DNA from: Undaria pinnatifida
Taxonomy: Eukaryota; Sar; Phaeophyceae; Laminariales; Alariaceae
NCBI GenBank assembly: GCA_012845835.1
Contig: JABAKD010000007.1
Location: 5,409,358 to 5,473,357, forward strand
Direction of reading: 5' to 3'
Length of the DNA: 64,000 nucleotides
Within the stretch, counting starts at the first letter, position 1; each line of letters starts with the position of its first letter. The translations under genes were made by a program, and so were the position numbers. This document shows, piece by piece, positions 1,604 to 47,341 of the stretch. Under the pieces are notes generated by a model that made no database searches, was not told where the DNA came from, and was given only the letters and a program-made list of their open reading frames with translations.

Positions 1604-1876
1604 AACCTGATAAACGGAAACATCGTTCTCGCAGCAGCAGTAGATCATGCAGTGGCCAACGCTGGGCAGAGGTCGGGGTAGAGCAGAGACAGGTAGAGCA
1701 AAAACGGAGTGAATTAACCTCTCACAGTACAGGCGTCGAAGTTGCCTGTTCTGACGGTTTTGTGTGCTAGTAAACCACCTTTCCACATAGTACAACAGAA
1801 ATATCCTTTTGAGTTCTTGCTGCCCTACAGATACCCTGAGACATGTAACTGGAACGGTTATTCTGTATGTCGCCAC

Positions 1877-3879
1877 GAGGAATGACCTCTCTCTTCATTT
1901 CTCGGGTTGCCTCAAAATATCCTACCTATCTCGACGGCTACTGCCCACACGATCTCAATCTCGAACATACGCACGTAGTCAACACGTGTGTATGTCACGA
2001 ATACTATACAACTGGCGGTACGTCCACGACTCCGCCCGTGACGCTAGATCTGCGTTGTCCATAGTGGTATTATTAGGCAGGGCGTAGTGCCGTAGTCCTC
2101 GTCGTATTGGAACGATATCGTCGCGGTGGCAAGGGGCTTCGTATTCCAGGAGATGCGGCCACGAGCTGGTTTCATAATCATCGATTTTGTTAAAGAAGAG
2201 TTGCGGTGGCTGCTGTACTCGCTACGCAATAGTCGCGTGCAAAGAATATTGCACAGGCTATATTAAGCAGGTCAATCACGACGGTAAAATCGGCGGTCAG
2301 TTGACGAGGGCGGGGTTTCCACACGGTGCGGGGCGTTGTCGACCGGGGGGGAACACTGTTAATGTCCCCGAGTTGTTGACGTCGTACAGGGTGATTCAAG
2401 CTAAATGGCGAAACTTCTCTCCCACAGCAATGCCTGATGCAATATCTAGTCAAAGGGTGAATGTTATCGAGCTTCCTCCGTAGATGAATAGTGTATAGAT
2501 TTGATGTGAAACCATGTCATGGTTGGGGTAACCTACTAGGTGATGGTAAATGTCACACTAACGTCAGGGCCATTATAGATGGGCGACAATATAAGTAGAG
2601 GCGAAAGACCATGCAGGACACCGCTTCATCGTCACTGTACTACTTGCTCAGCTTCGCTCTGTTTGTCTTTTAAATTTAGCGTTCTTTCAGGAGTAACATT
2701 GTAAGCCTTGAGTCTAGACGGCAAGCATTGGGAGAGATGACAAAGACACCGGAACCATTAGGAGAACTCTTCCCAGCACCGACAACCCTGTATCCCCCCT
2801 CCGAGCGGGATACCTTGACACGTACCCTCGTCGGCAGGACAGTGCCTAGCTTGGGCTGCGTGCCCCCCGATTCTTCTAGTGTTCTCGTGTTGCCGAAGGC
2901 GAGCTTTCTGGACTGGATTTTCTGGCTTTTTCATCGTTTTTCGATACCCGCTCTCCCCGTGCATTCTTTTGGTGGGACAACATGTACCTTAAGAGGTGCC
3001 GCCATGAGCATTGTAGGTATATACCTGGTTCAAGCATGCATGCTATTTTTTCCTACCTGCCTTTTCAGTAGATATCCCGCGAGTATATCGCATGTCAATC
3101 TAGCTGCTTCAACCCTGTGAGCACTTTTCACCCGACTTATTCGAGTAGCCGGCTACCTTGCACCATCCGTTCGGGGTACCTTGGCATGACTGTTTGGAAT
3201 GAACCTGACCCCCATGACCAGTGGAAGAAGGTGACATGGTCAGTTTGTTCTTGACATTCTCGGGCTGTCTCTAGGAGAAAAACTTGTATCGACCAATGAT
3301 TGGCCTTCAATATTTCCAATAGTATGAAGGATTTTTCCAAACAGGGGCAAAGTAACAATTGCACCGCATTATCATCGACCCTGTAGGAAGTACTCCAAGG
3401 CATGTCTGTACAAATATTCGCCCAAAACCTCGAAGATCTGAACTGCCTACGTTCAAAATGAAGCACAATCTAGCGAAGAAACTGGATATCCTTCAACTAA
3501 AAACCAAGTCATTTGAAGGAAATAGCGTATCTTCCTAGATTAATCATTAAGCAAACAAGTCCAGATGTCTACGCCGGTTTGGAGAGATAGTCCCTGATAT
3601 TTCGCACACGTGTTCTACATACCAATCCCGAGGCCTGGCCTCCGGGTGTTTTGTTTTTTGGTTGGCCCAATTTTTTAAATTTAGGGTGGTCCAATTTTCC
3701 AAAAATACTTAACAGACGAAACATAGGGGAAAAACATAGAATGAAGCCCTAGGTGGAGTCTTCGCAAAGGCACATAGGAGACGTATACAAAGTTGACGAT
3801 CTGAATAAAAAAAACGACGTAGACATTCGCCATCTAGTAAGTTTGTGCCTTTTAGCTTGAACCGGCTTGTAGACATATG
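1877..3879. other. Stretch without a supportable gene
   Basis: Only short ORFs occur here, without recognisable domains. The one item noted is 2108-2225, which resembles half of the small inverted-repeat family seen intact at 26601-26840 (shared elements: GGGGC/T-rich stretch, GAGATRCGGCC, GAGCTRGTTTC, ATCGATTTT). A possible copia leader or LTR could be in this interval, but no second LTR is present to confirm it. Confidence 0.5.
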
Positions 3880-5265: not shown

Positions 5266-6204
5266 CTGGTAGGGTATTGACAGGCAAACCAGAGGCCACA
5301 TCGACTTTCAAATTTGTACTTATGCAGCAAGGCTTGCTTGATCGAGCTGCAAGGACTGCCGCGGGGTTGTTGGCAATGCCCAACACGCCACGGCCACCGC
5401 TAGGCGCGGCATGAGACCTGGTTTTCAGCTGGTTATGCCGCCCACCTTCCCTCCTCATACGACAAGACGGCGCTTAAACGGTCTGAGTGGCGATACCATG
5501 ATGGCAGACAGACAGACAGACAGAGAGACAGATAGACAGACAGACGTGTTTTCACTATTATATAATGGGGACATTACTTCACAAACAAGGTGTTCCCGTA
5601 CATTTGTGTACGCCGGCGTCGGCCGAAATGCAACGACGCTAACGGAAGGTTCAGAAAGCCTTGCATCTTAACAAACGACGCACACCGGAAGAGAACATCA
5701 CCTACTCTCACAACCAAAACCACAAACTGAATCAGACCTTCACGGATCCGCTACCTAGGTATAGAAAGCACACCGTGCCCATATGGGAGGGTGTCCGTCA
5801 AGACATCTCGCGGCCATCCGCCGTACTTAGGAACAATATAACTAACGTTCGGTAGGGGGATTTGTACCACGAAATTTTACCACCGAGAGGCTAAACTAAT
5901 CGCTCCAGAGTAGTAGCTATGTAACTCGCTCAAGTACCATATTACCTTTTTTTATCTTTGTACACGCCGCACGACACCCAAGTAAATCAACGGCGGCATG
6001 CTGCTTACCGGAGGGTATGCAGTGGAGAGCTTACTGTCGGCCGCCACGGTGCCTCACTTAACGTACGCAGCAAACGTCACAGCATGCAAATCAGTCGCCA
6101 AAGTGAGGCAACCACTTAACCGCTTTCGAGTCCCCAAAACCCTCCATATACTTAAGCCAAGTAAGTTATCTCCAAAAAATGGCCTTCCGGTTGTAAAGGC
6201 GTTA
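5266..6204. other. Unassigned stretch with a CAGA microsatellite
   Basis: No supportable gene. It contains an imperfect (CAGA)n tetranucleotide run at about 5503-5546. The last four bases (6201-6204, GTTA) are the left target-site duplication of the LTR element that follows. Confidence 0.5.
5503..5546 (+). repeat. (CAGA)n microsatellite
   Basis: About eleven tandem CAGA units with a few substitutions (GAGA, TAGA), read directly from the sequence. Confidence 0.9.
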
Positions 6205-6473
6205 TGTTAAGATACGGCCTCGAAAGGCCTGAGAGTATCCGAATTTGAGATCATTTGGATGGGTTTCGTATGATAAGGTTGGCGGTTTATATTCGGGGAA
6301 GTTAGGAATTAGCTCGGAGGCACGCGCCTCCGATCTCAGAAGCTATCCCGGGCTCTGGTGGAAACGAATAAAGCTACAACTCTACGAAGGAACGAAAGTG
6401 AGTACTCCGAGGACCTTACTCAATTGGCAGACCTGCAGGGGGCACTCTGTGTCCCCCACCTATTAATTTCACA
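6205..6473 (+). repeat. 5' LTR (269 bp)
   Basis: Starts TGTTAAGATACGG and ends TTTCACA. Regulatory content visible: a TTTATATT TATA-like box at 6286-6293 and an AATAAA polyadenylation signal at 6367-6372. There are three potential hairpins: GGCCT/AGGCC with a CGAA loop (about 6216-6229), an 11-bp stem around an ACGC loop at about 6312-6337 (one mismatch in this copy), and a GGGGGCAC/GTGTCCCCC stem at about 6438-6457. It differs from the 3' LTR at three bases and one deletion. In an active element it would supply promoter and poly(A) site. Confidence 0.95.
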
Positions 6474-6492
6474 AGTGGCGTCGTCGAGCTTG
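6474..6492 (+). promoter_or_regulatory. Candidate tRNA primer-binding site
   Basis: Three bases after the LTR end the sequence reads TGGCGTCGTCGAGCT (from 6476). The leading TGG complements the CCA tail of a tRNA, as expected for minus-strand priming. I cannot name the tRNA without the host tRNA set. Confidence 0.45.
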
Positions 6493-6666
6493 ATATGCTA
6501 TTGTGGCAGCGTTCTTCCGGTCTCTCCGTTTTTTTTTTTCGTAGCGATTTTGCTTTTACTTTCCATCGAGCCCACAACCCCTGTTCCTTCTCGGGTGGCT
6601 TCTCAATGGAGGGAGCGCCCTTCCTCCTACAACGGCGACCACAACAGCAGTGAGATGGCAGGGGCC

Positions 6667-6870
6667 CCTCCTGTTGGTCGCCGCGCACGTACCACACGGA
6701 CGACACCTTCCAAGTACGTGCGGACGACTCTGCTCTGCGGAGCACACTCCTCGTCTCGAATTTTGGTCCCTCCTGTTGGTTGCTGGGCACGCACCACACA
6801 GAGGACACTTTCCGAGTACAGGCGGACGACACTGCTCTTCGGAGCACACCCCTCGTCCCGGCCTTTGGCC
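6667..6870 (+). repeat. 102-bp tandem duplication (34-residue repeat) in leader
   Basis: Two copies start at CCTCCTGTTGG (6667 and 6769) and run through GCACRYACCACAC, GAGTACRGGCGGACGAC and GGAGCACACYCCTCGTC. The length is a multiple of 3, so an open frame is preserved across both copies. Confidence 0.8.
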
Positions 6871-8539
6871 GCATCAGTTCACCGCCAGCTGGTCATAGAC
6901 CACTCAGCAGTGGAACTGCCCGAGCCCCACCCATCAGACTTGTTTGCTCCGCGCTCTGCCAGCATGTTGCACAGCACATATCCGCGAGTTGCCAGCACAA
7001 GTCCCAAGATCGGCCATCGACTCGTACTTTTTTTTCGCGCTTTGGGACTCGGAGGCATATGCACGACATGCCACGGACAAGCATACTGGAATCAACCCTT
7101 CGAATGACATTCGAAGGGGACTTCGCTCGCTGAGAGAGCCCATCGCCCAGCACATCCTTGCTGTCGGTGCCAGACCGTCCTTCGCGGGACCCCCTTGGAC
7201 TACGGGCACCGTGCTCTAGGAGCTCATGTCGGGGCTCCTTCCTTTGTGATCTACCTGGGAAGAAACAGGCGGTGCTCGTGGAATGTTTGAGCTTTTTCGT
7301 TTGGCGAATTTTCCAGTACACGCGTTATCGTATGGGTTTCAGTATGTACGTCGATCATTCTTGTGCGTCGAACAAGCAGCTGCCCTTGTGCCCCCTTTCT
7401 GCCGAAATTAGTACAAGCTACGAATTTGGCACCTCGGACCCCTCTCCGATCTTTCTCGATCAACAGCGTTCCACTACTGCTGTCCGTCGCGTAGCTTCAA
7501 CCACCATCATTTTTGCAGAGGTGCCAACTACAGTGCAGCACAATGGGCTCGCTGTCAATGCCTGCCATATACCGCCGGATTCTCTGCTGTAGAAGTCACT
7601 GTACAGCAGCCAAGCCGCCTACTTTGCTCCTGCTCATACACCACATAGCTCGACCCTTCACTGCCCCAGCGTCCACAGTTACAGCACCGCAGCTCTGACA
7701 CCCCCCACTGCTGTGCGAGTGCTCCTTGCAAGTTCGATTCGAGAGGTTGTTTTTTTTCGTCCTGGCCCCTCCGTGACTAGAACTTGAACCTAGTGAACGC
7801 TGAAACTCTGTGCTGGCTTTTTTGGGCAAGACTACTGTTGGTGTGTGCGATGCCCTATATTTTCCCATTCATGGGTACGCGGGAACTATAATACCACTTT
7901 CTGTGTATGCACAGCTGTGACCGTGCGGCACTCCGCACTGCTGTCAACGTAACTGTCCCTTTATCGGTGGGAGTGGGTACGGATTTTTTTTCAGCTGTCC
8001 GGGCGTTAGGCCGTCTTCCTGCCCGTACATGTGCTGCCCTTCACGATATTGCTAGGGCCTACGCTGGAATTTTTTTTTCTTCTTCTCTGCACATGTTCGG
8101 ACAGCTACTGCCCGTTACAGAGCGCTTACTACACAGTTCGCGGAGATACTGCGCTTCACAGTTTTTACTAGTGCAGTGGAGAACAGCCCGTTTAATGCGG
8201 TACCTTTGGGGGCAAACAGCCTTTCTATTCGACTGTGGGCGTGCACATTTTTCTACAGCTGGTGTTGGTACTACACTACCCATCTTGGTGCGGTTGAAAT
8301 TACCGTTACCTGTAAACACAGCAGTGATACTGCAGCAATCAGCACTACTGCAGGCGCGACCGTCCCCCTTTAGTGCGGTCGGGGGAAACTACTTTGTTTG
8401 GAAGGGTTATACTGCCCGTTTTTTTTTAATATACGGTTGGTGCGCGAACGTATACTGTCCTACCCCCCACTACACTACTGTGGGGGCAGATGCTGCCCAT
8501 TTTTATACGGTTGGCTGCGCGATCCTTCACTGTGCTCCC

Positions 8540-9800
8540 CCCCTACACTGCACCTAGGGTAAATGCTGCCCGTTTTAGTGCGACGAGTGTCAGCGTGTTG
8601 GGTGACCTTTCACTGTGCTCCCCCCCCCTACACTACACCTAGGGTAAATGCTGCCTGTTTTGGTGCGATGAGTGTCAGCGTGTTGGGCGATCTTACACTG
8701 TGCTTCCACCCCTACACTACACCTAGGGTAAATGCTGCCTGTTTTGGTGCGACGAGTGTCAGCGTGTTGGGTGACCTTTCACTGTGCTCCCCCCCTACAC
8801 TACACCTAGGGTAAATGCTGCCCGTTTTGGTGCGATGAGTGTCAGCGTGTTGGGCGATCTTACACTGTGCTTCCACCTCTACACTACACCTAGGGTAAAT
8901 GCTGCCTGTTTTGGTGCGACGAGTGTCAGCGTGTTGGGTGACCTTTCACTGTGCTCCCCCCTACACTACACCTAGGGTAAATGCTGCCCGTTTTGGTGCG
9001 ATGAGTGTCAGCGTGTTGGGCGATCTTACACTGTGCTTCCACCCCTACACTACACCTAGGGTAAATGCTGCCTGTTTTGGTGCGACGAGTGTCGGCGTGT
9101 TGGGTGACCTTTCACTGTGCTCCCCCCCCCTACACTACACCTAGGGTAAATGCTGCCCGTTTTGGTGCGATGAGTGTCAGCGTGTTGGGCGATCTTACAC
9201 TGTGCTTCCACCCCTACACTACACCTAGGGTAAATGCTGCCTGTTTTGGTGCGACGAGTGTCAGCGTGTTGGGTGACCTTTCACTGTGCTCCCCCTCTAC
9301 ACTACACCTAGGGTAAATGCTGCCCGTTTTGGTGCGATGAGTGTCAGCGCGTTGGGCGATCTTACACTGTGCTTCCACCCCTACACTACACCTAGGGTAA
9401 ATGCTGCCCGTTTTGGTGCGACGAGTGTCAGCGTGTTGGGCGACCTTTCACTGTGCTCCCCCCCTACACTACACCTAGGGTAAATGCTGCCCGTTTTGGT
9501 GCGATGAGCGTCGGCGTGTTGGGCAAACCTTTACTGTGATAACCCCTACACTACACCTAGGTTGAATGCTGCCTGTTTTGGTGCGATGAGTGTCGGCGTG
9601 TTGGGCGACCCTTAGGTGTGTTACCCCCTTTACACTACACCTAGGGTAAACGCTGCCTGTTTTGGTGCGATGAGCGTCGGCGTGTTGGGCAAACCTTTAT
9701 TGTGATAACCCCTACACTACACCTAGGGCAAATGCTGCCTGTTTTGGTCCGGTGAGCGTCGGCGTTTTGGGCGACGCTTTCCTGTGCTACCTCCCCCCGC
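8540..9800 (+). repeat. 83-84-bp minisatellite with two-unit higher-order structure
   Basis: About fifteen units, each with the core CACTACACCTAGGGTAAATG followed by CTGCCYGTTTTGGTGCGAYG and AGTGTCAGCGTGTTGGG. Type A units carry CGACGAG and GTGACCTTTCACTGTGCTCC; type B units carry CGATGAG and CGATCTTACACTGTGCTTCC. They alternate strictly A-B from 8560 to about 9440, giving a ~167-bp higher-order period, then give way to diverged C and D types (CAAACCTTTA, GACCCTTAGG). ORFs of 60-83 codons running through it are repeat translations and are not annotated. Confidence 0.95.
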
Positions 9801-10171
9801 CTAGGTCGAATGATGCCTGTTTAAGTGCGATGGCTGCAGACGTACCCTTACTGTGTTGCACCCCCTGCACTGCGGTTGGGGTCAGTGCTGCCCAGTTTTG
9901 GCTCCTTGTACTGCGGTTCGTGCGGGCGTTACCCATATACCCTACGGTCAGACTGGGCGCTGCTCTTATGTTGCGGTTATGATGATTGGTACCTTGTTAC
10001 TGCTGTACTCCTCTTATACGGCTAGTTGACGTGGCTGCTACCATCACTGAGGCTGGACGGAGTCAAGGTCCATATTGTTGCTGTTTGCTGAAACACAGAT
10101 ATACCGCTCCTTGGAGCAGGAACACCACAACAATTTATCTGTCTCCATAGCTTCTTCACGCGTCGTTCCTA

Positions 10172-10196: not shown

Positions 10197-10215
10197 TTCA
10201 CTACACCTAGGCACC

Positions 10216-12640
10216 ATGTCCACCAGTGACGATGGGGGCTACTCGGGGCTGGCTGAGGTCTTCCACGCACCCCAACCTGGATGCCCACGAGACAGGGAGA
10301 GCTCGCTGGAGATGCCGCGACTCGAGACGGGGAGAACCACCGGTGGCGGGTTCCGGTGACGAGACAGAAGACGGAGCACCATACCTCCACCCGTTCCCAC
10401 CAACCAAGCGGGTCGATTCGCTGGTTCGCGCTGAGAAGAAGACGGACCAACCCCCACCGGACTCGGGGGCGTCTCGACGCCAGCTCTCGCCAGCCCCGGG
10501 GGAGCGCCACCAGCTGCCCCCCCCGCGCTCGACAGGGCACCACCGCCGCCACCTGGGCTCTCCGCGCTCAACAGAGCGCCACCCCCAGAGCTCCCGGGAC
10601 CGGGGCGCCCATGCCGACCCCTTGGACTTGGCATACGCGGCGGCACGGGCCCAGCGGGCGCTCGACGACGCCAACCAGACGATAGCACGCCGACGTCGGT
10701 TTGACGAAGATATCGAGCAGGCGAAGACCGCTGCGCGGGAGTCGTCCCTGGTTGCGAAGAAGGCGCAACAAGCCCTCGCTCAATCAGTTGCGTCGGCTGC
10801 GGCGGGAGCTAACGCGGCCCCCTTGCCTTCGTCGCGCCCGCAGGGTGTCGCATCCCAGCGACCACGACCCGGGAACGACGTCTTTCTCAAGGGCATCGTC
10901 GCGTGCATGGCGTCTGCACCGCGGGTAGACTTCTCCTCAGCGTTGGCGACCCGCGGTGGTGGAAACGGCCTGCGCCCTCCTCCCGTCAGAGAGGCCGGCG
11001 TCGCGGCAAGCGGACGTCCTCAATGGAAGCGGCCTGGGCTCGCGTGGATTGTACGCCCTATGCTAGACAGACGAGAGCCGCCCCGACCCTTGCCCTCGTC
11101 AAGGCCCTGCTGATAGCCCACGACGAGGACCCCGACCCTGTCTTTTGGCCGGACCCCGGAGGAAGAGTTGGCAGAACGAAACCGGGGAAAATGTCGCGAC
11201 AGTCGCGACCGCGGGGACCGCAACTGGGGGGTGGCGGCAAAAATGGTGGGGGTGGCGACCACCACCGCCGCCGCGGGGGTGACAGCGCATCGGGTGCTGG
11301 TGTGCCTGAGGGCGCCGCCGAGGGGGCAACTTCGGTCCAACAACCGGGGCAGTTGGCCGCCGCTCTGGCAGAGGAATGGCGCGAGAGGACGTTCAGCGTG
11401 GAACGGCTCGTCAACCTCCTCCCGCTCGTCTTCGTCCTCGAGCACGGACCACAGCGAGGTGGTCGTGGTAGCAGGCAAAAAGTGTCAAAAGCCATGGCAG
11501 GAGGAGCATCTGCCTGAGGCTTTCACCCCCCTGTTGCGTCTGCTGATCACGCACTTCGACGGGGTTGACACGGAGGAGGGCTACACTAAGTTGCATACTT
11601 TTGGAATGTGTAACGGCATGCCTTTTTCTGATTTCAGCGGGGAGTTTCGCGTACTTATGCCGACCGCTAACGGGGAGTGAGCGTGTTTTGTCTCCGGGGA
11701 CGGATGTGGTGTTGGAGGTGGTTTGGGTGGCGGCGAATGAGCAATTTCCGGCTCTCCTGCCTGCGTTGTACCCTGGTTCGAAGGCAACAAACCCGCGGCC
11801 GTACACCTCGTTGGATGCTATGTGGCGGTCTTTTAGTGACCAATAAGACACCTGCCGTCAACGGCGAAACATTTTTTTTCTCTCCCTGTTTCTTCGACGG
11901 GAGCGCGGTCATGCGCCCTGTCGAGGCCCCGGCCCGCAGATCATGGGCGCGGCCAAGGCCGAGTGCCGTCCCAGTCGCTTTCGTGGCAGACGGGATCGAG
12001 CCATCATTCAACTGTCATGCCCATCGATGATTCATCTGACCCTTGGCTTGACCACACATCGAACTGCTGGCCACTAGAAGAGCATCATTATACAGAAGGT
12101 TTCGCCGTGAAGGCCTCGTTTAAGACAGACGACCCTCCCCTTTGGAGCGGCCTCCTTTCATCTCGCGCTGATGCCCTCCGAGAAAACCGGGGGCTTTGCC
12201 TCAACTGCCACGAAGACAACTATTCCTTCAAGCATTGTAGGCATCCTTTCATTACTGCGAGTGGCTGCTTGAACCCTGAACTTGGCCAACTTGGCGACGA
12301 TGACGCACACCGACGTTGACAAACACGCATGGTCTGCTACTGCCGAGACGACAAATCTTCTCGCCCGAACAACAAGAAAAATCGTCGCCATCTTTCTGGT
12401 CAATCGTCGTCATCTTTCAGGATCAGGGCCAGGTAGACTGTCACAACGATACCACGTACACGTCGGATCACCATGGTGGTATCCTGCGCTCGCCCGCCTC
12501 TTCTGCCCCCGCTGCCGCTCCTCGAAAGCGCTTTGGAGCCGCCCACAACCTGGGCGAAAATAAATTTGCGCGCCGACCTGGTACATTCCGTAACGGCAAT
12601 TGACAGCTCGACGGCGGTACGGCACCGTCGACAACACTGT
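10216..12640 (+). pseudogene. Gag of the LTR element, multiple frameshifts
   Basis: The likely start is ATG at 10216 in a CACCATGTC context (MSTSDDGGY...). After an early frame change the sequence is open from 10226 to 11113 in another frame. It is Pro/Arg-rich at first, then an alanine-rich predicted coiled coil (LDLAYAAARAQRALDDANQT..., about 10620-10810). Capsid-like text follows at about 11495-11680 (EEHLPEAFTPLLRLLITHF...) and continues after a 1-base shift to about 11845. A zinc knuckle lies at 12197-12238: CLNCHEDNYSFKHC fits C-x2-C-x4-H-x4-C, except that the His is Tyr (TAT where CAT/CAC is expected), which would abolish metal binding. Gag would assemble particles and bind element RNA. 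Frameshifts, stops and the lost His show that this copy makes no functional Gag. Confidence 0.75.
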
Positions 12641-13119
12641 CGAGTGGTAACTCTTTTGGTTTCAGAACATGCTCGTTGCGTGTTCTGTTGCTAGCCTGCC
12701 CAGTAACGCAGCACAGACTGCCTCTGTCAAGAGCCCACGGGCTCCTACGCCGTCTGCGGACGATTCTCACGGCGTAGTACCGGCGGCGGGAACTAGCGCT
12801 TCAAGCGTGGTTTCCTCGAGCCACGTAATTTTTTTCTTTTCTTTCTTTCTTTTTTGACGGCGACAACGCGCGCTTTCCGCGACGTTCCCCTCGGTCATGG
12901 TCTGAGTTCGGCAACGGGAACCGCGCTTCCGGCGCCGTACCCCTCAGCCGCGGCATAAACTCAGCAATGGGGTACGCGCTCCAAACTCCGCCCCCATCAA
13001 CCATGGCACGGGAGCCTGCGCTTTGCGCGATCCCCCCCCAGGCACGCGCCGCGCAACAATGTAGCTGCGGCGACGGCGCGTCGCCTTTTTACGCGTATGT
13101 GTTCATCCCCCCCTCTCCC

Positions 13120-13240
13120 TGACCAGGCGGTGGCGGTCGGTTTGAGGTGTGGGACGGTCGACCCTCGAAACACTTTTTCTGACCACGAGGTGGCGGTCGA
13201 TTTGAGGTGTGGGAAGGCCAACACTAAAACACCGAGATCT
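13120..13240 (+). repeat. ~60-bp tandem duplication
   Basis: Two copies of GACCA(C/G)G(A/C)GGTGGCGGTCG followed by TTTGAGGTGTGGGA lie about 60 bp apart (from about 13121 and 13180). The interval 12640-13690 around it has only short, stop-interrupted, Pro/Ser/Thr-rich frames and no domain that I recognise. Confidence 0.7.
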
Positions 13241-13689
13241 TTTGCGAGGCTCGATCCGGTGTTTGCTCGCGATAACAGCGGGCGCTCTGTCCTTTTTTCC
13301 ATCAAGGAGGAGTCGACAAGATTAGCTACCTCGTCTCCCTTCTCCAAGAGACATTACGGAAGAGAGCCTCCTCGGGTAAAAATATTATTGCCTTGCCCGA
13401 GCCCCGCTCCAGAAGACGCCCACAGGGTTTACGGACCCTGCTTCGTCTTTTAACACGCTAACCCACGTGTTTCAGGCTACGTCTGCCCCAGTGGCACAGG
13501 AAGAAGATCCGACACTGCGCGACGGGCCAGTAGTGACTCCACGGCCTCCAGCCTGATCAGCTGGACGCTATTCCCGTAAATTTACGGAAGAATCGCGCCT
13601 CTCGTCAAGCAGAAACAGCTCAGAGCCCCTGCCCCTTCGGGCGCAGTTAGAGCAGTTTTCTTGCGATTATACGCCAAGAAGCGAAGAGG

Positions 13690-14235
13690 CCACGAGGCGA
13701 GAAACCGTGGGTTCGGACTCGCGTCGTGCTCCCGAGGCCTGGTGTTCCTGAGGGGGACACTACAGGCCCAAAGAGCCGAGGACTGGTGTTCCCAGACGGG
13801 GACATTGCAGACCCAAATGCCCAACGAGGCTACCGACGGGTTGGCACCGTCGGTGTTGGACTCTTTTTCGGGTGCAATGAGGGCGGCTTCTTACGAGTTT
13901 CCGCCAGCGAGTGAGGAGGACCCGAGGCGAAAAACCCCGGGTTCGGACTCGCATCTTGCTCCCGAGGCCTGGTGCTCCCGCAAGGGGACATTATAGGCCC
14001 AAAGAGCCGAGGACTGGTGTTCCCAGCAGGGGACATTGCAGACCCACAAATGTCCAACGAGGCTACCGACGGGTTGGCACCGTCGGTTTTGGCCATTTTT
14101 CGGGCGCAGTTAGAGCGTATTCTCGCGCTTTTCCGCCAACGAGCGAATAAAGACCCGAGGCGAAATACCACGGGTTCGTATTCGCGTCGTGCTCCCGAGG
14201 CCTGATGTTCCTGGACGGGGACATTGCAGGCCCAA
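13690..14235 (+). repeat. ~230-bp tandem repeat (about 2.3 copies) upstream of the NADAR domain
   Basis: Copies are anchored on GGGTTCGGACTCGCG and CTCCCGAGGCCTGGTGTTCC at about 13711, 13939 and 14170, so the period is about 228-231 bp (roughly 77 codons). In its best frame each unit encodes an acidic/aliphatic piece (GLVFPDGDIADPN), a link containing GLAPSVL, a predicted helix (RAQLERILALFRQ) and a basic tail. The third copy is cut short and runs straight into the NADAR domain. Frames differ between copies, so the linker protein is broken. Confidence 0.75.
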
Positions 14236-14917
14236 ATTTCAACACGGATTTTGACCCTTCTCTCGAATACTCCACAGCCAAAGTGGTGTTATTCTGGCAG
14301 CCCCCATCCTATTTCCCACCGTGGTCTCCTTCGTCGTTTGCCGTGGACGACGTACCATATTCTTGCGCGGAGCAGTACATGATGGCCGAAAAGACCAAGT
14401 TTTTGCAAGACCATCGAGCAGTGGGGCTCATTATGTCGTCGCCTCGTCCAAGCATACGCAAACGCATCGGTCGAGGCGTGCGCAACTTTGACTCCGCTGT
14501 TGGGGACAGGGAGAAGCAAAACGCCGTGTCACCTGGCACCTACGCCAAATTTGCGCAGAACCCAGCCACGAAAAATCACCTTTTGAGCTCTGACAACAAG
14601 CTTCTGGCTGAACTCAGCCCTCTGAACCCAGTGTGGGGCATTGGTCTCCGGGCGGATGGTCCCAGGGGCAACAACCCATGCCAGGAGAGAGGAAAAACTT
14701 GCTCGGTGAGGCACTTTCTGCCGTTCGCGCAGCTATTTGCGAGGGTCGGCGCACCCGGCCTCCCCTAGTCGGTTCCGCACCTGCACTGCGAGTGCAAGAA
14801 CCAAGAAATCTCGTCCGCGCCGCAACCAGACCGTTCACAGCGGCCAGCGCTCGCAAAGCTTCCCCTTCGGCGTTTCCGACCTATTTCTCGGGCGCGTTGG
14901 CCAATGAAAAGCCGTGA
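14205..14917 (+). pseudogene. NADAR (DUF1768/YbiA-like) domain inside the LTR element, one frameshift
   Basis: From ATG 14205 the first ~155 codons carry the NADAR signature in order: VVLFWQPP (about residues 27-34), a Y-x2-AEQYMMAEK block (52-63, including the conserved acidic residue E56), IGRGVRNFD (88-96), YAKFAQNP (113-120), LAELSPLNPVWGIGL (134-148). Near 14675-14690 a single-base shift moves the last part (RKNLLGEALSAVRAA) into the +1 frame, which is open to 14917. NADAR proteins of about 150-180 residues hydrolyse N-glycosidic bonds in ADP-ribosylated nucleobases or riboflavin intermediates. The conserved Trp after NFD is Gly here (VGDR where VWDR is usual, TGG to GGG). It sits between the repeat array and protease, so in an intact relative it should be part of the Gag-Pol polyprotein. 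I am confident of the domain; its role in the element is unknown. Confidence 0.85.
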
Positions 14918-15132
14918 AGTTGTGGAGATAGCTTCTAGCGTTGGCCCTGACCTTGCGATGTCAGAACACTGCGCCTGTTTCGTCGAGGGTACTGTGACGC
15001 TGGACGACGTTTTGTTCACTATGAAAATCGCGTTTATCAGTCGAGCAACGCTCGACTTGGAGAGGCACTGAACTCCTATAGATTTGGGGACCGGCAGCAT
15101 TGCTTGGGTTCCCAAACACCTCCGAGGATACT
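14913..15132 (+). pseudogene. Retropepsin-like protease remnant
   Basis: In the frame reading VVEIASSVGPDLAMSEHCA, a ~50-residue beta-rich segment ends at a TGA near 15070. Ten residues later comes PIDLGTGSIAWVPKHLRG (about 15075-15128), which resembles the D-[ST]-G-[AST] active-site loop of retroviral-type aspartic proteases with surrounding hydrophobics, although the residue after Asp is Leu. Position between NADAR and RNase H agrees with protease. The enzyme would mature the polyprotein; here it is broken by stops and truncated by the polymerase deletion. Confidence 0.5.
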
Positions 15133-15140
15133 GAGGGGAA

Positions 15141-15335
15141 CAAAGTTCCGCATATCCTCCGGCCACAATACATAGGAGAGCATTGGCAAAGTGGGGACCC
15201 TCAATGCACGAGTCCAGCGGTAGCTTGAGTTCGTCACCGCGTTCGATTGCACACTCGAGTACCGCAAAGGCAGCGCCAAGGGCATCGCCGATTTTTCCGG
15301 CCCGTTTTCCAGAGCCCGCTACGGAGTACGACCGC
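15141..15335 (+). pseudogene. C-terminal tail of RNase H; reverse transcriptase deleted just upstream
   Basis: In the frame beginning KFRISSGHNT at about 15144 the sequence reads on to ESIGKVGTLNARVQR, a TAG, then LEFVTAFDCTLEYRKGSAKG and IADF. This matches the end of Ty3/gypsy RNase H: the DH-x-L strand, an R-W-L-x2-L motif (Trp codon now TAG) and the final Y-x-x-G-x-x-N-x-x-AD segment. The protease remnant ends about 15 bp upstream, so the palm, fingers and most of RNase H, normally more than 1 kb, are gone. The identification is by motif spacing only. Confidence 0.65.
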
Positions 15336-16022
15336 AGTGGCTTGGAAAAATTCAACCTCGTGGGGTTGACAAGCCTCAACCCCGTTGGAGATAGCGGTAT
15401 CTACCTCCTACGGACCCGCGGGCTGCGCGCTCCCCCCTCGCCGATCCCAGGAGTCGGTTCGGGTGGACTCGCGCCCCTCGCCAAAAGCACTGTCTTGGGT
15501 GGGCTCGTGCCCCACACGGAAAGCACTGCTTTGGGTGGACTCGAACCCCTCGCCGAAAGCACTGTCTTGGGTGGGCTCGTGCCCCGCACTGAACATGCTG
15601 CCTTGGGTGGGCTCCCTCTCACCTCTACCGCGTTTCACGATTTTCGCACACACGAGCCACGTATAAGGATTGACGGCCTTTCTGTTTCCCCGGGGAGATT
15701 CGTCGCTCGTGTTTCTGCCTCCGTCGCCACTACCGAAGGCTGTACCGGCCGCGGCTCGATTTCACCTGCCGCCGACACTGTTTTCGCTTCGGTCTTTGCC
15801 ATACCCATCGAGGGCGGTACGGGCTCCGCAGAAGCCCTGGCTTCAGCGACGCCCATCGCACAGCCGACTTATCTATCCCGGAGTTCTTTACAGGAGACGG
15901 CCCCCGCCGCGACCACCGGTTGGACTGTGTCCGTCTCCGCCATGCTTGGCACTCCAGCCCCTCCGTCGTCGACGACGCGCCGACGAACAGCGATAACAAC
16001 GGGTAATGCACCCCCGCTGTAG
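15336..16022 (+). pseudogene. RNase H-integrase linker with 12-residue repeats
   Basis: An open frame from 15183 to 16022 continues past the RNase H tail as Pro/Ser/Thr/Ala-rich, probably disordered sequence (SGLEKFNLVGL..., GIYLLRTRGLRAPPSPIPGVG). It contains about four 36-bp units (15450-15630) encoding ESTVLGGLVPHT-like dodecamers. No enzymatic motif is present. Position implies a spacer between RNase H and integrase. It ends at a stop at 16022. Confidence 0.5.
15450..15630 (+). repeat. 36-bp tandem repeat (12-residue)
   Basis: GCACTG(T/C)(C/T)TTGGGTGG(G/A)CTCG recurs at 15487, 15523 and 15559, with a diverged fourth unit. All units are in frame. Confidence 0.85.
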
Positions 16023-16194
16023 ATTATGGATTCGGGCCCGGCGGGGCCCCTCGGCCATCTTGCGGACGAAATACAACCCCGTCGCGAGTTCCACGGCCGC
16101 AGCCGACCCCGTCGCCGCCGCGACCCCTGCTCTTGTCGACTCGCCGGTCCGCACGGTGCCACTGCCGTCCGACCGCGACCTCGCAGAGCCTATA

Positions 16195-16575
16195 TGGGAA
16201 CTCCTCTCTTACGGCTCCCGCCTTCTCCTGGTGGCACGCCGACCGCATATACAAGGGCGGACGCCCTTCGCAACGCTGCTGAATTGCGTTTCGCTGATTC
16301 CGTCGCGCGTTATTCGCATTCCGATTGGAAGCGAGAGCAGCACGCTGAGCCGACGTGCCACGCCATGATGCATTACGTTTCTATCGGCCGGCAATCGGTC
16401 CTGCCGCCCGACTTTTTGGCGTGCTACCTCTTGCACAAGCGTCCCTCCCTCTCAGACATCCAGGAGCTGGCGGGTAAGGGTCGACTACATACAACCGACG
16501 ACGACATCGTCCTACTCGTCCGTAACCCGACACTACCGCCAACAAGCTCCGACAAACCGAACTCTGTGGGGCGAG
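16195..16575 (+). pseudogene. N-terminal part of the integrase region, out of frame with the main ORF
   Basis: The frame of 16026-16862 contains coherent text from about 16195 (YTRADALRNAAELRFADSVA..., SDIQELAGKGRLHTTDDDIV...) up to about 16560. This looks like the segment preceding the integrase zinc finger in Ty3/gypsy Pol. The continuing sequence (LWGELLALLNDEPVRIYVP) is in the frame of the 16576 ORF, so a small indel near 16560 separates them. No catalytic motif lies in this part. Confidence 0.5.
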
Positions 16576-18516
16576 TTGCTTGCTTTGCTAAACGACGAGC
16601 CAGTTCGCATCTACGTTCCCGTGCTCATGCGCCCTTGGATCATGCAAGCTTGCCACTCGACGGCCTCCTGCCACCTTGGCACCACGCGCACGTTGCGCAT
16701 GCTGGAGCGTTTTTTTTGGTGGATTGGCATGAGTGTGTGTACCCGGTGGTGGCTTCGCCACTGCTTGAAGTGCCAAGCGCGGAAAACCCCACAGTTGACT
16801 GTCCGCTTGCCCATCATCACAATGCCTCTGCCGGAAGGTCCAGGTATCGCCGTCAGTGTTGACTACTTCGGCCCCCTTCCGGTCACACCACGAGGCAACA
16901 CCTACATCCTGCTGTTCACCGATCGCTTCAGTCGTCGGGCCGACATGTTCCCCGTCACTGCCGCTGAGTGCACCGCGGAAGATACAGCCAATATCCTGGT
17001 GAACCAATACATCCCCTTGTGGGGGTGCCCGCGCACCATACTCTCGGACAACGGACTGCAGTTCTGCTCCAAGCTTTCACAAGCTGTATATCAGCTGTTA
17101 GGTGTACACAAGCTTGCTACAAGCTCCTACCATCCCAACTGTAACGGGGGCGTTGAGCGGGTAAATCACACTATGGCACAAATGCTGGCTATGGTCGTCA
17201 ACGAGCGACAAGACGACTGGGACTCGCATCTGCCCCACGTCGAATTCGCTTACAACAACTCTGTCAGCGCGGCGACGGGTTTGGCGCCCAACGAGGTTCA
17301 CATGGGCAGACTCCCACGGCTCCCCCTGACGATTTTCGACCGCAAAGGTGTCGTGGGACACCAGAGTCTGGCCCGTGACCACCTGGCCTATTGCGATTTG
17401 GCCACCGACCGGCAAAAGCGCGCGAACGACATTGTCCGCGCACACCACGCCCTCACCGTTTCCCGTGTTAACCGCAGAAACTCCGCCCTCGCCGACGCGC
17501 TGCGTCCAGCACCTAACTTCACTGTGGGTGGTTGGGCATGGGTATACAATTCTGCCTCTACCATCCGCCAGGGTGTGAAAGCGAATACCGACGCCAAGGT
17601 ACTCAAGGCCAAACTCGCGCTTAACTGGACGGGCCCATACAAGGTCCTGGCCGTCGGTCCCTGCTCCGCCGCCGAGACCCCGGACGGCTCGCCGCTCGGG
17701 AGCAACCTCCTTTATTTGGATCTCCCTTCCGACCTGCCTGGTTCGGACGCTCGTCGGCGTGTGGCTATTGAGCGCTGCAAACCCTGTGCCAACCCCCACG
17801 ACAGCGGGGACATGCCCAAATACCTACCGGCGGGGCTGACACAGTATGTGCTCAACAAGTTTTCCAAGAAGTCCCCGCCGTACCACGTCACTCAAGACGA
17901 CGTTTCGACTCCCCTCCAACGGCTGGAGGTGGAGCAGATCACTGGTCATCAGTCGGTACGGGGGCGAGGTGGCGTCATCGCGGTGCTATACAAGACGCAT
18001 TGGGCGGGACTCTCCGAACCGTCCTGGGAGCGGGAAATGGACCTTCACCTCTCCCGCTCCCACATCTTGCGTTATTGGGCCGGAACCCCGGACCAGCACC
18101 GCCAAACCAACCGCCTTTACCGCCGAATGCGGATCGGGGCGGCACAGCGTGAGCTCTCCCGCAACAACGGGGAACGTTTCCTGGCGCCGGGCTACGCCTG
18201 TGTTTCCCGCACCGATTGGCTCCGTCGCTACCACGACACCGTACTTCCTAAGAGAGCCCACGTTTGGTACAAGGGAGACGATGGTTTATGGTGGCTAGGA
18301 AAAATCAGCGCGAGCACTACCGAGGACAAGGTATACCTGGTCCGCTTTCTGGACGACCCGGGACCGATTAAACTCCCTCTTCCCCCGGCGCGCTACACGA
18401 CTTCAACGGGAGCCGTACGAGGCTCTTGGTGCTTGCAAGTTCACATCGCCAGTGCGTTTCCTCGGGGAATCCAACGTAACGTAGACGAATCTCGAGGCGC
18501 GGCCGTGGCCAGTTGA
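16576..18516 (+). CDS. Ty3/gypsy integrase with chromodomain and Tudor-like tail
   Basis: A 646-codon ORF. Residues 27-66 form an HHCC zinc-binding domain (H27, H33, C63, C66). The catalytic core has D96 in SVDYFGP, D158 in ILSDNGLQF and E194 in GGVERVNHT, a complete D,D35E triad with the usual 35-residue spacing. Residues ~450-500 look like a chromodomain (LEVEQITGH..., YKTHWAGLSEPSWEREMDL), which in chromoviruses steers integration to marked chromatin. Residues ~560-612 (VWYKGDDGLWWLGKIS...VYLVRFLDDPG) resemble a Tudor/Agenet barrel. The enzyme inserts element cDNA into nuclear DNA. The annotated ATG is not the native start, since integrase is normally cut from Pol and upstream sequence is in another frame. 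The long intact frame contrasts with the broken gag and missing reverse transcriptase. Confidence 0.93.
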   Translation: MLALLNDEPVRIYVPVLMRPWIMQACHSTASCHLGTTRTLRMLERFFWWIGMSVCTRWWLRHCLKCQARKTPQLTVRLPIITMPLPEGPGIAVSVDYFGPLPVTPRGNTYILLFTDRFSRRADMFPVTAAECTAEDTANILVNQYIPLWGCPRTILSDNGLQFCSKLSQAVYQLLGVHKLATSSYHPNCNGGVERVNHTMAQMLAMVVNERQDDWDSHLPHVEFAYNNSVSAATGLAPNEVHMGRLPRLPLTIFDRKGVVGHQSLARDHLAYCDLATDRQKRANDIVRAHHALTVSRVNRRNSALADALRPAPNFTVGGWAWVYNSASTIRQGVKANTDAKVLKAKLALNWTGPYKVLAVGPCSAAETPDGSPLGSNLLYLDLPSDLPGSDARRRVAIERCKPCANPHDSGDMPKYLPAGLTQYVLNKFSKKSPPYHVTQDDVSTPLQRLEVEQITGHQSVRGRGGVIAVLYKTHWAGLSEPSWEREMDLHLSRSHILRYWAGTPDQHRQTNRLYRRMRIGAAQRELSRNNGERFLAPGYACVSRTDWLRRYHDTVLPKRAHVWYKGDDGLWWLGKISASTTEDKVYLVRFLDDPGPIKLPLPPARYTTSTGAVRGSWCLQVHIASAFPRGIQRNVDESRGAAVAS

Positions 18517-19378: not shown

Positions 19379-19646
19379 TGTTAAGATACGGCCTCGAAAG
19401 GCCTGAGAGTATCCGAATTTGAGATCATTTGGATGGGTTTCGTGTGATAAGGTTGGCGGTTTATATTCGGGGAAGTTAGGAATTAGATCGGAGGCACGCG
19501 CCTCCGATCTCAGAACTATCCCGGGCTATGGTGGAAACGAATAAAGCTACAACTCTACGAAGGAACGAAAGTGAGTACTCCGAGGACCTTACTCAATTGG
19601 CAGACCTGCAGGGGGCACTCTGTGTCCCCCACCTATTAATTTCACA
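19379..19646 (+). repeat. 3' LTR (268 bp)
   Basis: Identical to the 5' LTR except for three substitutions (A/G, C/A and C/A) and one deleted G. Starts TGTTAAG and ends TTCACA. The internal palindrome AGATCGGAGGC-ACGC-GCCTCCGATCT is perfect in this copy. It is followed by GTTA, the right-hand target duplication. Confidence 0.95.
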
Positions 19647-19695
19647 GTTAACAGCACGTCAGCCTACGAGACTCAGAAAACGGCGCTGACAAGCC

Positions 19696-20120
19696 AAATG
19701 GTTCAAAGTCCAGCACAGCCAAGCGAAGCAAAGAATATACAGGCAAAGCGAAGCCACGCCAAGCGGAGCCAAGCCAAGCCAAGCGAAATAAAGCCAAGCC
19801 AAGCCAAGCCAAGCCAAGCCAAGCCAAGCCAAGCCAAGCCAAGCCAAGCCAAGCCAAGCCAAGCCAAGCCAAGCCAAGCCAAGCCAAGCCAAGCCAAGCC
19901 AAGCCAAGCCAAGCCAAGCCAAGCCAAGCCAAGCCAAGCCAAGCCAAGCCAAGCCAAGCCAAGACAAGCCAAGCCAAGCCAAGCCAAGACAAGCCAAGAC
20001 AAGCCAAGACAAACCAAGACAAGCCAAGCCAAGCCAAGCCAAGCCAAGCCACGCAAAGCCTAGCCGAGCCAAGCCAAGCCGAACCAAGCCGAACCAAGCC
20101 GAGCCAAGCCAAGCAAAGCG
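19696..20120 (+). repeat. (AAGCC)n pentanucleotide satellite
   Basis: Pure AAGCC units occupy about 19792-19955, flanked by variants (AAGCG, AAGAC, ACGCC, GAACC) that degrade outward on both sides. It begins about 50 bp beyond the LTR insertion point. Open frames of 117-181 codons in several frames and on both strands are automatic consequences of the repeat and are not genes. Confidence 0.97.
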
Positions 20121-20129
20121 AACCCGACC

Positions 20130-20390
20130 AACGTAAACCACCGACACCAAACCCGACCCGACCTTAACCTGACCTCTAGCACAACGCACCGAAACTGCCT
20201 TCAAATCACGCCTTGTTCCCTTAAAAAACTGAACTTAGTAGTCTAATTGTTTATATTTTTGACATTCTGGTCGTCGGGCGAGACCCGCATGAAAAATCGC
20301 CCGCCGTCCAGGCGGGAAAGATCCTTTTGGGGGCGCGCCGTCCCAATATTCGCCTCTCACTAAACATGAGCACACTATTCCACTTTTAGG
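20130..20390. other. Unassigned spacer
   Basis: Decayed repeat edge followed by AT-rich then GC-rich sequence. A short inverted motif GGCGGGCG/CGCCCGCC lies around 20277-20320 (TCGGGCGAGACC, ATCGCCCGCCG, AGGCGGGAAAG). No gene supported. Confidence 0.4.
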
Positions 20391-46396: not shown

Positions 46397-47077
46397 CTAC
46401 AGGCAATCGTCATGCTCACTGAGAATGCTCTTTATCAGTAGTACGATATCGAAAATCCCCTTACCCCTCGTTCTAATGTCTTGTTCCGACCAGTCGTCAG
46501 AGATGGTGAGCTCTCTGACCTTGTCCGCCAGAACCACACGAGGCCAAAGGGAGATACAAGCAGCTAGCGTGTTACGTACGCCGGAAATGTGCTCTGCAGA
46601 GTGGGTCCAGCCTCCCTTTACTTTGATACGCCCGAGCATTCTCATGAGTATGCATGCTCGTTTGTCCTTCGCCCCCCCGCATCGAGAGATCCACGATACT
46701 GCTGCCGTGTTGTCACCGCGCATCAGAATGGGATCACCCTTTTCGTCCGCCCTGTCTCCTGTCAGTACAAGCATGACCCACGCGGTCACAACCTTGCCCA
46801 ATATTGCTAACAGGTTGATCGTGATAGTACAGGTCTCTCGTCGATCGTCTTCTTTCTTTAGCTCTGCGGTCAGTTCTCTTTTGGCAAGTCGTATCTCCAA
46901 AATACCTCCCTCTCGACACAAAAGCCGCCAACTGCCTCGAAAGTGGCGTCGGCCACGTAGTGCCTTTTTGCGGGTGGTTGTATCGCCGTTAGCAGGGGGC
47001 GCTAAGCACCCCGCCTTCGTGTAGTAGTTCGTGATGGATTGCCCACTTCCAGATGAGACGGTCAGCGTGAAACTCAT
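46397..47077 (-). pseudogene. RNase H region of the DIRS-like element
   Basis: A 227-codon open stretch. KELTAELK-like text (here KRELTAELKKEDDRRETCTI) precedes INLLAILGKVVTAWVMLVLT. GDPILMRGDNTAAVSWISRC holds the RGDN aspartate motif. KDKRACILMRMLGRIKVKGG and WTHSAEHISGVRNTLA follow, with the H-x2-G-x2-N-x2-A end of the domain. The arrangement fits the RNase H-like segment between reverse transcriptase and recombinase in DIRS elements, which removes RNA from the hybrid. The N-terminal ~30 residues are frameshifted text and not native. One acidic residue near the end (AACIS where ADxIS is usual) appears lost. Confidence 0.7.
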
Positions 47078-47341
47078 TGCCGAGTCCTGGGACTACCGTT
47101 CGGTTCAGGTGTTTGCTACCTCCTGGGCTGTGCAGCCCGGTCGGCCGCAGCAACCTCCACACGAAGTACCCATCAGCCCGAGCTACCTACGTGAGGTTCC
47201 ACAACTTGGTGGTCATGCTTAGCGCGTCCCTCGCCGTCGCTTCCCTCCAGCTCTGGGGTCCTTGCTCGAACAGCAATGCCTTATCGAAATTCTCATGATG
47301 TGGGAGCAAGTATTGAAGCCTAGCGCGTCTATCGTGGTGTC

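What the first reader, a model, noticed from the sequence alone, without database searches (positions are those of the whole stretch)
14205..14917. NADAR (DUF1768) domain carried between gag and protease of a Ty3/gypsy-type LTR retrotransposon
The AEQYMMAEK, GRGVRNFD, YAKFAQNP and LSPLNPVWGIGL blocks in order identify a NADAR fold with good certainty. The domain lies within two LTRs that share a target duplication, and it is followed by protease, RNase H tail and integrase. NADAR enzymes are known to cleave ADP-ribose from nucleobases and to act in riboflavin-intermediate damage control. A retroelement carrying one could be countering host ADP-ribosylation of its nucleic acids, or could have captured it for NAD+/nucleotide metabolism. 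This copy has a frameshift near 14680 and a Trp-to-Gly change after NFD, so function would have to be tested in intact relatives. I cannot tell from the sequence whether this fusion has already been described.
Basis: partly seen in the sequence, partly recalled or inferred. Interest (0 to 1): 0.88.

Follow-up and report, generated by a model that had tools for sequence, protein, structure and literature searches.

The report
NADAR enzyme inside kelp retrotransposon Pol
A large family of kelp jumping genes carries, inside its own replication polyprotein, an enzyme domain of a type known to remove ADP-ribose from nucleic acids; the copy in this window is a broken one, a related fusion was published from another brown alga in 2025, and what the enzyme does for the element is still unknown.

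Summary
The NADAR domain is real (PF08719, 97.9 bits, cut-off 35.1) and lies between LTRs of 269 and 268 bp with a 4-bp target duplication. This copy is dead: NADAR is frameshifted and has lost two ADP-ribose-contact residues (W89G, D130N, 8bau paper numbering), and ~2.1 kb with the protease active site and RT is deleted, so the finding's 'protease' is absent. The family is not dead. In the host genome, apparently Undaria pinnatifida, 150 NADAR matches were scored of 1454 candidates; 14 lie in stop-free pol frames of 2473 or 2371 aa. Active-site residues are kept in nearly all of 48 distinct copies. Variants shared by two or more copies have N/S 0.21 in NADAR, 0.20 in PR, 0.24 in RT, 0.41-0.48 in spacers. 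NADAR and PR trees of seven lineages agree. So the domain is inherited with Pol and selected. The fusion was described in Ectocarpus in 2025 (PMC12477816). Best mechanism: a Pol-borne ADP-ribosyl hydrolase acting on the element's RNA or cDNA; activity and substrate are inferred.

The parts
6205..6473 (+). 5' LTR (269 bp, TG...CA)
   Evidence: direct repeat with 19379-19646; 3 mismatches and 1 gap column; 95.9% to the 3' LTR of another copy
19379..19646 (+). 3' LTR (268 bp)
6201..6204 (+). target-site duplication gtta, left side
19647..19650 (+). target-site duplication gtta, right side
8536..9753 (+). tandem repeats in the 5' leader (repeat spacing 84-249 bp)
   Evidence: family D2; 86-98% to the leader of other copies
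10211..11680 (+). gag N-terminal region, in two frames (10211-11113 and 11117-11680)
   Evidence: frames; 95-99.6% to family copy L010
11840..12603 (+). gag C-terminal region with a degenerate zinc-knuckle-like motif (frames 11840-12319 and 12304-12603)
   Evidence: motif read by eye, no Pfam match for 11840-12316
12601..12603 (+). TGA that ends gag; in most family copies pol follows in the same frame
14250..14696 (+). NADAR (PF08719), decayed: W89G, D130N; its C-terminal end lies in another frame from about 14669
14669..14914 (+). C-terminal tail of NADAR and linker, shifted frame
14907..15041 (+). linker end and first residues of the protease segment; the protease active site and RT are deleted after it
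15027..15295 (+). RNase H tail (pol residues ~1348-1437), in two frames
16369..18516 (+). integrase frame: H2C2 zinc domain 16615-16788, rve core 16840-17136, weak chromodomain-like stretch 17926-18054 (below cut-off)

Best explanation
The window holds a dead, internally deleted, mosaic copy of a kelp Ty3/gypsy-type LTR retrotransposon family whose Pol carries a NADAR domain. SHOWN: the domain sits between an in-frame TGA at the end of gag and the protease in undamaged copies; it keeps its ADP-ribose-binding and catalytic residues; it has been inherited together with the protease; and it is under purifying selection in the lineages that spread. INFERRED: it is made only as a minor gag-pol product by read-through of the TGA (or restart after it), enters the particle with PR, RT and IN, and there works as an N-glycosidic ADP-ribosyl hydrolase that takes ADP-ribose off guanine bases of the element's RNA or single-stranded cDNA, or clears related ADP-ribose adducts. 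The template thus stays copyable in a cell, or in the face of toxins, that ADP-ribosylates nucleic acids. My odds: selected functional domain 0.95; active hydrolase 0.75; nucleic acid of the element as the substrate 0.4.
For: Copies: 150 scored of 1454 candidates; 9 in 2473-aa and 5 in 2371-aa frames without a stop. Architecture read in L009: NADAR 172.6 bits, then RVT_1, RNase H, H2C2, rve; same order of motifs in L011. L009's copy has LTRs 100% identical over 267 bp, so it inserted recently. Active site mapped on 8bau: of 28 family-1 rows (26 distinct copies) and 22 family-2 rows, E43 is kept in 26 and 20, E125 in 27 and 22, and K50, R79, W89, D130, W133 in all. Selection, duplicates removed, 26+22 copies: NADAR shared variants 15 N / 20 S, ratio 0.21, against singletons 0.56, Fisher p 0.013; shared ratios PR 0.20, RT 0.24, linker 0.48, post-PR 0.41. 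Co-inheritance: 7-taxon NADAR and PR trees have the same topology, all 4 inner branches starred in both. Structure model of a relative (P0001): pLDDT 87-98 over the domain, best PDB match 8bau, TM 0.78 by target length. TGA after gag in 18 of 21 distinct copies. Biochemistry of the family: PMC11543638, PMC11833690, PMC11125620 (passages; Discussion of the last).
Against: No activity or expression data. Shared counts are small (35 in NADAR). NADAR shared versus linker shared did not differ by Fisher test (p 0.35, counts before duplicates were removed). Singletons too depart from the neutral expectation, so mutation bias or the choice of copies contributes. The host's nucleic-acid ADP-ribosylating enzymes are unknown: one PARP-domain match, DarT search unanswered. 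In 3 of the 18 copies with the TGA the pol frame closes within 60 codons. Pol may be expressed by another route than read-through.
Confidence: 0.6

Rival explanations
1. The NADAR acts on small molecules, not on the element's nucleic acid: it clears ADP-ribose derivatives, NAD fragments or riboflavin intermediates inside or near the particle (damage control or anti-signalling).
For: A survey of viral NAD-ADP-ribose systems says that NADAR domains act on riboflavin intermediates and posits that viral ones may prefer soluble ADPr derivatives (PMC9503650, passages); the element NADAR is of YbiA type (E at the E125 position).
Against: For RNA viruses of eukaryotes, whose NADAR also sits in the polymerase polyprotein, the same survey favours macromolecular targets. 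The NADARs tested in one study reversed guanosine-ADPr on RNA (PMC11833690, passages).
Confidence: 0.25
2. The domain is kept for a non-catalytic reason: folding, spacing of Gag-Pol, or binding of nucleic acid or ADP-ribose-marked partners.
For: It sits at a fixed place in Pol between long linkers; its ratio of N to S is like that of PR and RT, which does not single out catalysis.
Against: The E125, K50 and ADP-ribose-contact positions are kept in nearly all of 50 rows and in both families, which are only 48% identical in NADAR.
Confidence: 0.15
3. Passive passenger: a cellular gene fragment carried by chance and not used by the element.
For: The window copy alone looks like this: frameshift, W89G, D130N.
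Against: Present in several diverged element lineages with the same phylogeny as the protease, open frames of 2371-2473 aa, low N/S in shared variants.
Confidence: 0.03

Closest known systems
NADAR-bearing Gypsy lineage of Ectocarpus (e.g. Gypsy-12_Ec32), Dinatale et al. 2025, PMC12477816
   Same: [quoted passage not shown] chromodomain reported at the C-terminus there, weak chromodomain-like stretch here
   Different: Other host (kelp). In the main text, of which I read passages and part 1 of section 5, the words synonymous, catalytic, kelp and Undaria do not occur, and it suggests bacterial transfer from blastp; its supplements were not seen. Its consensus sequences are not held here, so identity of the families was not measured
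Tx1 LINE ORF1 proteins of Crassostrea gigas with NADAR (same paper)
   Same: NADAR carried by a retrotransposon
   Different: LINE, ORF1, called divergent there; not examined here
NADAR in polyproteins of positive-strand RNA viruses (PMC9503650, passages)
   Same: NADAR embedded in a replication polyprotein
   Different: RNA viruses with an RNA-dependent RNA polymerase, no reverse transcription
Phytophthora nicotianae NADAR (8bau) and E. coli YbiA (2b3w)
   Same: same fold and active site
   Different: stand-alone proteins; 26% and 23% identical to P0001 in the fold alignment
Brown-algal stand-alone NADAR proteins (Pylaiella P0055, Ectocarpus P0064 and P0082, Scytosiphon P0091)
   Same: group with family-1 NADAR in the trees (98/95, 92/94, 99/98, 97/89), 55-60% identical
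   Different: 227-252 aa; P0055, P0064 and P0091 begin with a short Cys/His-rich stretch (P0082 part of it); not in Pol

Membership tests
NADAR superfamily (PF08719) | profile score above the curated cut-off | tested here: met
   window 97.9 bits, L009 172.6 bits, cut-off 35.1
NADAR superfamily (PF08719) | YbiA-type fold | tested here: met
   model of relative P0001, 8bau E 3.2e-13, TM 0.78 by target length; the window protein itself was not modelled
NADAR superfamily (PF08719) | ADP-ribose-contact and catalytic residues E43, K50, R79, W89, E125, D130, W133 (8bau paper numbering) | tested here: met
   family: nearly all of 50 rows. Window copy: W89 and D130 lost, so not met there
NADAR superfamily (PF08719) | hydrolysis of ADP-ribose from guanine | not testable with these tools
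   needs an enzyme assay
YbiA subfamily | Glu, not Asp or His, at the E125 position | tested here: met
   E in 27 of 28 family-1 and 22 of 22 family-2 rows; E in the window
Ty3/gypsy-type LTR retrotransposon | LTR pair with target duplication | tested here: met
   window; L009 copy, whose tata duplication lies in an AT repeat and is weak
Ty3/gypsy-type LTR retrotransposon | order PR-RT-RNase H-IN | tested here: met
   L009; PR recognised by LLDTGSPQTF and retropepsin matches below cut-off. In the window the PR active site and RT are missing
Ty3/gypsy-type LTR retrotransposon | RT groups with Ty3/gypsy RTs in a tree | not tested
   no RT tree was built
chromodomain-bearing Gypsy | chromodomain after integrase | tested here: inconclusive
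   PF00385 13.3-13.7 bits, cut-off 25.1
Ectocarpus Gypsy-12_Ec32 lineage | sequence kinship to that consensus | not tested
   consensus not held

The most novel reading that the evidence does not exclude
A retrotransposon-encoded counter-measure: the Pol NADAR strips ADP-ribose from the element's RNA or cDNA, which implies an unrecognised nucleic-acid ADP-ribosylation in brown algae; and the stand-alone NADAR genes of these algae are the element's domain domesticated by the host, since they nest inside the element NADARs in the tree (97/89; one retro clade not rejected, AU p 0.125).
Probability: 0.2. Interest if true: 0.85.

Novelty: new member of a known kind. Interest (0 to 1): 0.5.

Why it matters
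If the domain is active, LTR retrotransposons join phages and RNA viruses among the mobile elements that carry an ADP-ribose eraser, and brown algae become a system in which to look for ADP-ribosylation of nucleic acids as a barrier to retrotransposition. The many copies give a ready natural experiment: lineages that keep the domain against lineages, like the window's, in which it has decayed.

Tried and rejected
Two separate captures of NADAR by the element: suggested when retro families 1 and 2 fell apart (AU p 0.0126), not rejected after long rows were pruned (p 0.152), and weakened by five more element copies from diverged lineages (all retro plus algal rows on one side of a branch, 86/72) and by the matching PR tree. 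A direct bacterial donor for family 1: its nearest rows are brown-algal proteins, not bacteria, although Nannocystis-like bacterial proteins are ~58% identical. A cellular NADAR gene in this host: the 150 best, scored of 1679 candidates, are 42-57% identical and many of the leading ones lie in pol-length frames; an intron-split gene cannot be excluded. Own-genome counts of the Trp-to-Gly form, a DarT search, a DNA search with the window NADAR and an RT-based unbiased sample: not completed. Chromodomain: below cut-off, left open; no PDB match for the Pol C-terminal part at E up to 1. tRNA scan of the window: none, so no primer tRNA was assigned.

First N/S counts (and the Fisher tests) used 50 rows in which two genomic copies were counted twice (L004 = L009, L006 = L010). 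One search repeats the shared-variant counts without them and is the one cited, save the NADAR-linker comparison. In one search the RT segment mixed the two families, so its RT line is not used. For the tree I took 49 of the 125 proteins then at hand (proteins with short cover, and most of the close element-like ones, were left out). Between the trees eight long or odd bacterial rows and one retro row were dropped. One search looked at 20 lower-ranked copies; five of them, from diverged lineages, were added to the tree.

Full report
OBSERVATION. The window's frame 14151-14765 scores 97.9 bits against PF08719 (cut-off 35.1, E 9.4e-28). It lies between two LTRs, 6205-6473 and 19379-19646, that differ by three mismatches and one gap column and are flanked by gtta on both sides. 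Integrase (H2C2 and rve) follows at 16369-18516. Aligned with an undamaged copy of the family piece by piece, the NADAR runs in one frame to about 14696 and its tail lies in another from 14669; then a piece of linker and the first residues of the protease segment (14907-15041) is followed directly by RNase H (15027 on). Pol residues ~659-1347 are missing (about 2.1 kb). The protease active site and RT are therefore absent, against the finding's wording.

THE WINDOW COPY IS A MOSAIC. In 250-bp steps against copies L009, L010, L012 and L013, 9950-11950 and 16450-19646 are 93-99.6% identical, 8450-9950 is 86-98% (tandem repeats), and 11950-16450 is 68-89% with one step unmatched; 6450-8450 had no match in these stretches, which do not cover most of the leader. 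In codons the integrase has pS 0.024 against the intact family while the NADAR has 0.338. The simplest reading is recombination between an intact-type copy and an older degraded lineage, followed by movement in trans, because the LTRs are nearly identical and the copy lacks RT and the protease active site. The Trp-to-Gly change is not private: among the 181 proteins, P0015, P0021, P0043, P0044 and P0046 carry NFD..VGD, and P0034 and P0077 a variant of it. The window NADAR groups with P0021 and P0044 at 100/98.

HOST. The genome is 511,146,479 bases; the published Undaria pinnatifida assembly is 511,280,173 bases with scaffold N50 16,510,065 (PMC7058681, passages), and contig C34 here is 16,510,065 bases long.

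THE FAMILY. PF08719 gave 1454 first-look candidates, of which 150 were scored, all over the cut-off; 9 lie in 2473-aa and 5 in 2371-aa frames without a stop. In the copy L009 the pol frame runs NADAR (residues 408-557 of pol, 172.6 bits), LLDTGSPQTF (671 on), RT, RNase H, H2C2, rve. Its LTRs are identical over 267 bp; the whole is 15.5 kb; the tata next to both LTRs lies in an AT repeat and is weak as a target duplication. A second family (L011) has the same order of motifs, with RT 77%, PR 57% and NADAR 48% identical. Gag ends PGTFR..N and a TGA in 18 of 21 distinct copies examined (23 rows, two copies present twice; not found in L001, L056, L057). In 15 of the 18 the frame after the TGA stays open to the end of the stretch or for 982 codons; in the window, L059 and L063 it closes after 55-60 codons. 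Read-through is inferred from this.

ACTIVE SITE. In the P. nicotianae structure 8bau the ADP-ribose contacts include K50, R79, W89, R93, W133, D130, E43 and E125. In E. coli C7 NADAR, substitution of the residues at the K50 and E125 positions impaired hydrolysis, and substitution at the K50, E43 and E125 positions abolished rescue from DarT1 (PMC11543638, passages). By the alignment (chain numbers are two higher), counts over 28 family-1 and 22 family-2 rows are: E43 26 and 20 (K in the rest), K50 28 and 22, R79 28 and 22, W89 28 and 22, E125 27 and 22, D130 28 and 22, W133 28 and 22; position 93 is Lys in family 1 and Arg in family 2. These 50 rows (48 distinct copies of the 150 scored) come from a list ranked by NADAR score. 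The window has Gly for W89 and Asn for D130. A model of the relative P0001 has pLDDT 87-98 over the domain and, at E up to 0.001, matches only 8bau and E. coli YbiA.

SELECTION. In 26 family-1 and 22 family-2 distinct copies, codon variants were split into those in one copy (mostly after insertion) and those in two or more (mostly older, in source lineages). NADAR: shared 15 N / 20 S, N/S per site 0.21; single 135.5 / 68.5, 0.56; Fisher p 0.013. PR: 0.20 and 0.46, p 0.075. RT: 0.24 and 0.56, p 0.026. Linker: 0.48 and 0.75, p 0.32. Post-PR: 0.41 and 0.68, p 0.15 (fewer copies for the other segments). Against a neutral expectation the shared NADAR counts give binomial p 7e-6; but singletons also depart (p 3e-4), so mutation bias or the choice of copies contributes. 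NADAR shared against linker shared was not significant (p 0.35, before duplicates were removed). Between the two families synonymous sites are saturated (pS 0.758 in NADAR) while pN is 0.379 in NADAR, 0.303 in PR, 0.355 in post-PR, 0.157 in RT and 0.551 in the linker. I conclude that the domain is constrained about as much as the protease and less than RT over the long term.

HISTORY. Seven element lineages give the same topology for NADAR and for PR plus post-PR, every inner branch starred in both. The domain has thus travelled with Pol since before the two families split. With bacteria included, family 1 and P0121 (a 774-aa protein from an unnamed assembly with NADAR and a segment 62% identical to the family-1 PR segment) group with stand-alone NADAR proteins of Pylaiella, Ectocarpus and Scytosiphon (98/95, 92/94, 99/98, 97/89). 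Family 2 was a long branch: AU test of one retro clade p 0.0126, 0.152 after pruning, 0.125 with five more element copies. In the last tree the stand-alone algal genes lie inside the element NADARs, and all of them stand apart from bacteria at 86/72. Capture from the host, or domestication by the host of the element's domain, are both open. In the own genome the Ectocarpus protein finds matches of 42-57% identity in the 150 scored of 1679 candidates.

MECHANISM. NADARs remove ADP-ribose from guanine in DNA (PMC11543638) and from guanosine in RNA, and not from phosphate ends (PMC11833690, passages); activity was retained by all E. coli and phage NADARs characterised in one study, though only some rescued cells from DarT1 (PMC11125620, passages and Discussion). 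An enzyme made at Pol level and packed with RT would act on the template or cDNA. This is inference. The host has at least one PARP-domain match (33.6 bits); DarT-type enzymes were not searched with an answer.

NOVELTY. Dinatale et al. 2025 (PMC12477816; [quoted passage not shown] Searches NADAR + retrotransposon (20 of 104 papers listed), + gypsy (10 of 39), + transposable element + alga (14 of 14), + brown alga (10 of 80), + Tx1 + LINE (2 of 2), and YbiA + retrotransposon (1 of 1) showed no other paper that by its listing describes such a fusion (open-licence PMC only). What is added here: the kelp families, the kept active site, the N/S counts, the matching NADAR and PR trees, the kinship with algal stand-alone proteins, and the state of the window copy.

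Noticed in passing
window 46397-47092 (-): Frame that looks like the RNase H part of another retroelement (by eye; no search made).
   Followed up: no
window 19630-20160: Long run of short tandem repeats just after the 3' LTR (copies spaced by 10 or 15 bases; unit read by eye as 5 bp), open in several frames.
   Followed up: no
window 8536-9753: The leader of the element holds tandem repeats; several overlapping matches to the leaders of L009 and L010.
   Followed up: partly
L069, L073 and L067, L068, L072: Further diverged NADAR-bearing element lineages in the same genome, with a PR-like segment at the expected place.
   Followed up: partly
P0122 and P0123: Proteins that join NADAR with PF03747 (ADP-ribosylglycohydrolase-type, name recalled), P0122 also with PF10021.
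   Followed up: no
L009:678-2198 and 1781-3277: In this copy the gag N-terminal and C-terminal parts lie in different frames, while the corresponding stretch of the window reads through the junction in one frame.
   Followed up: no
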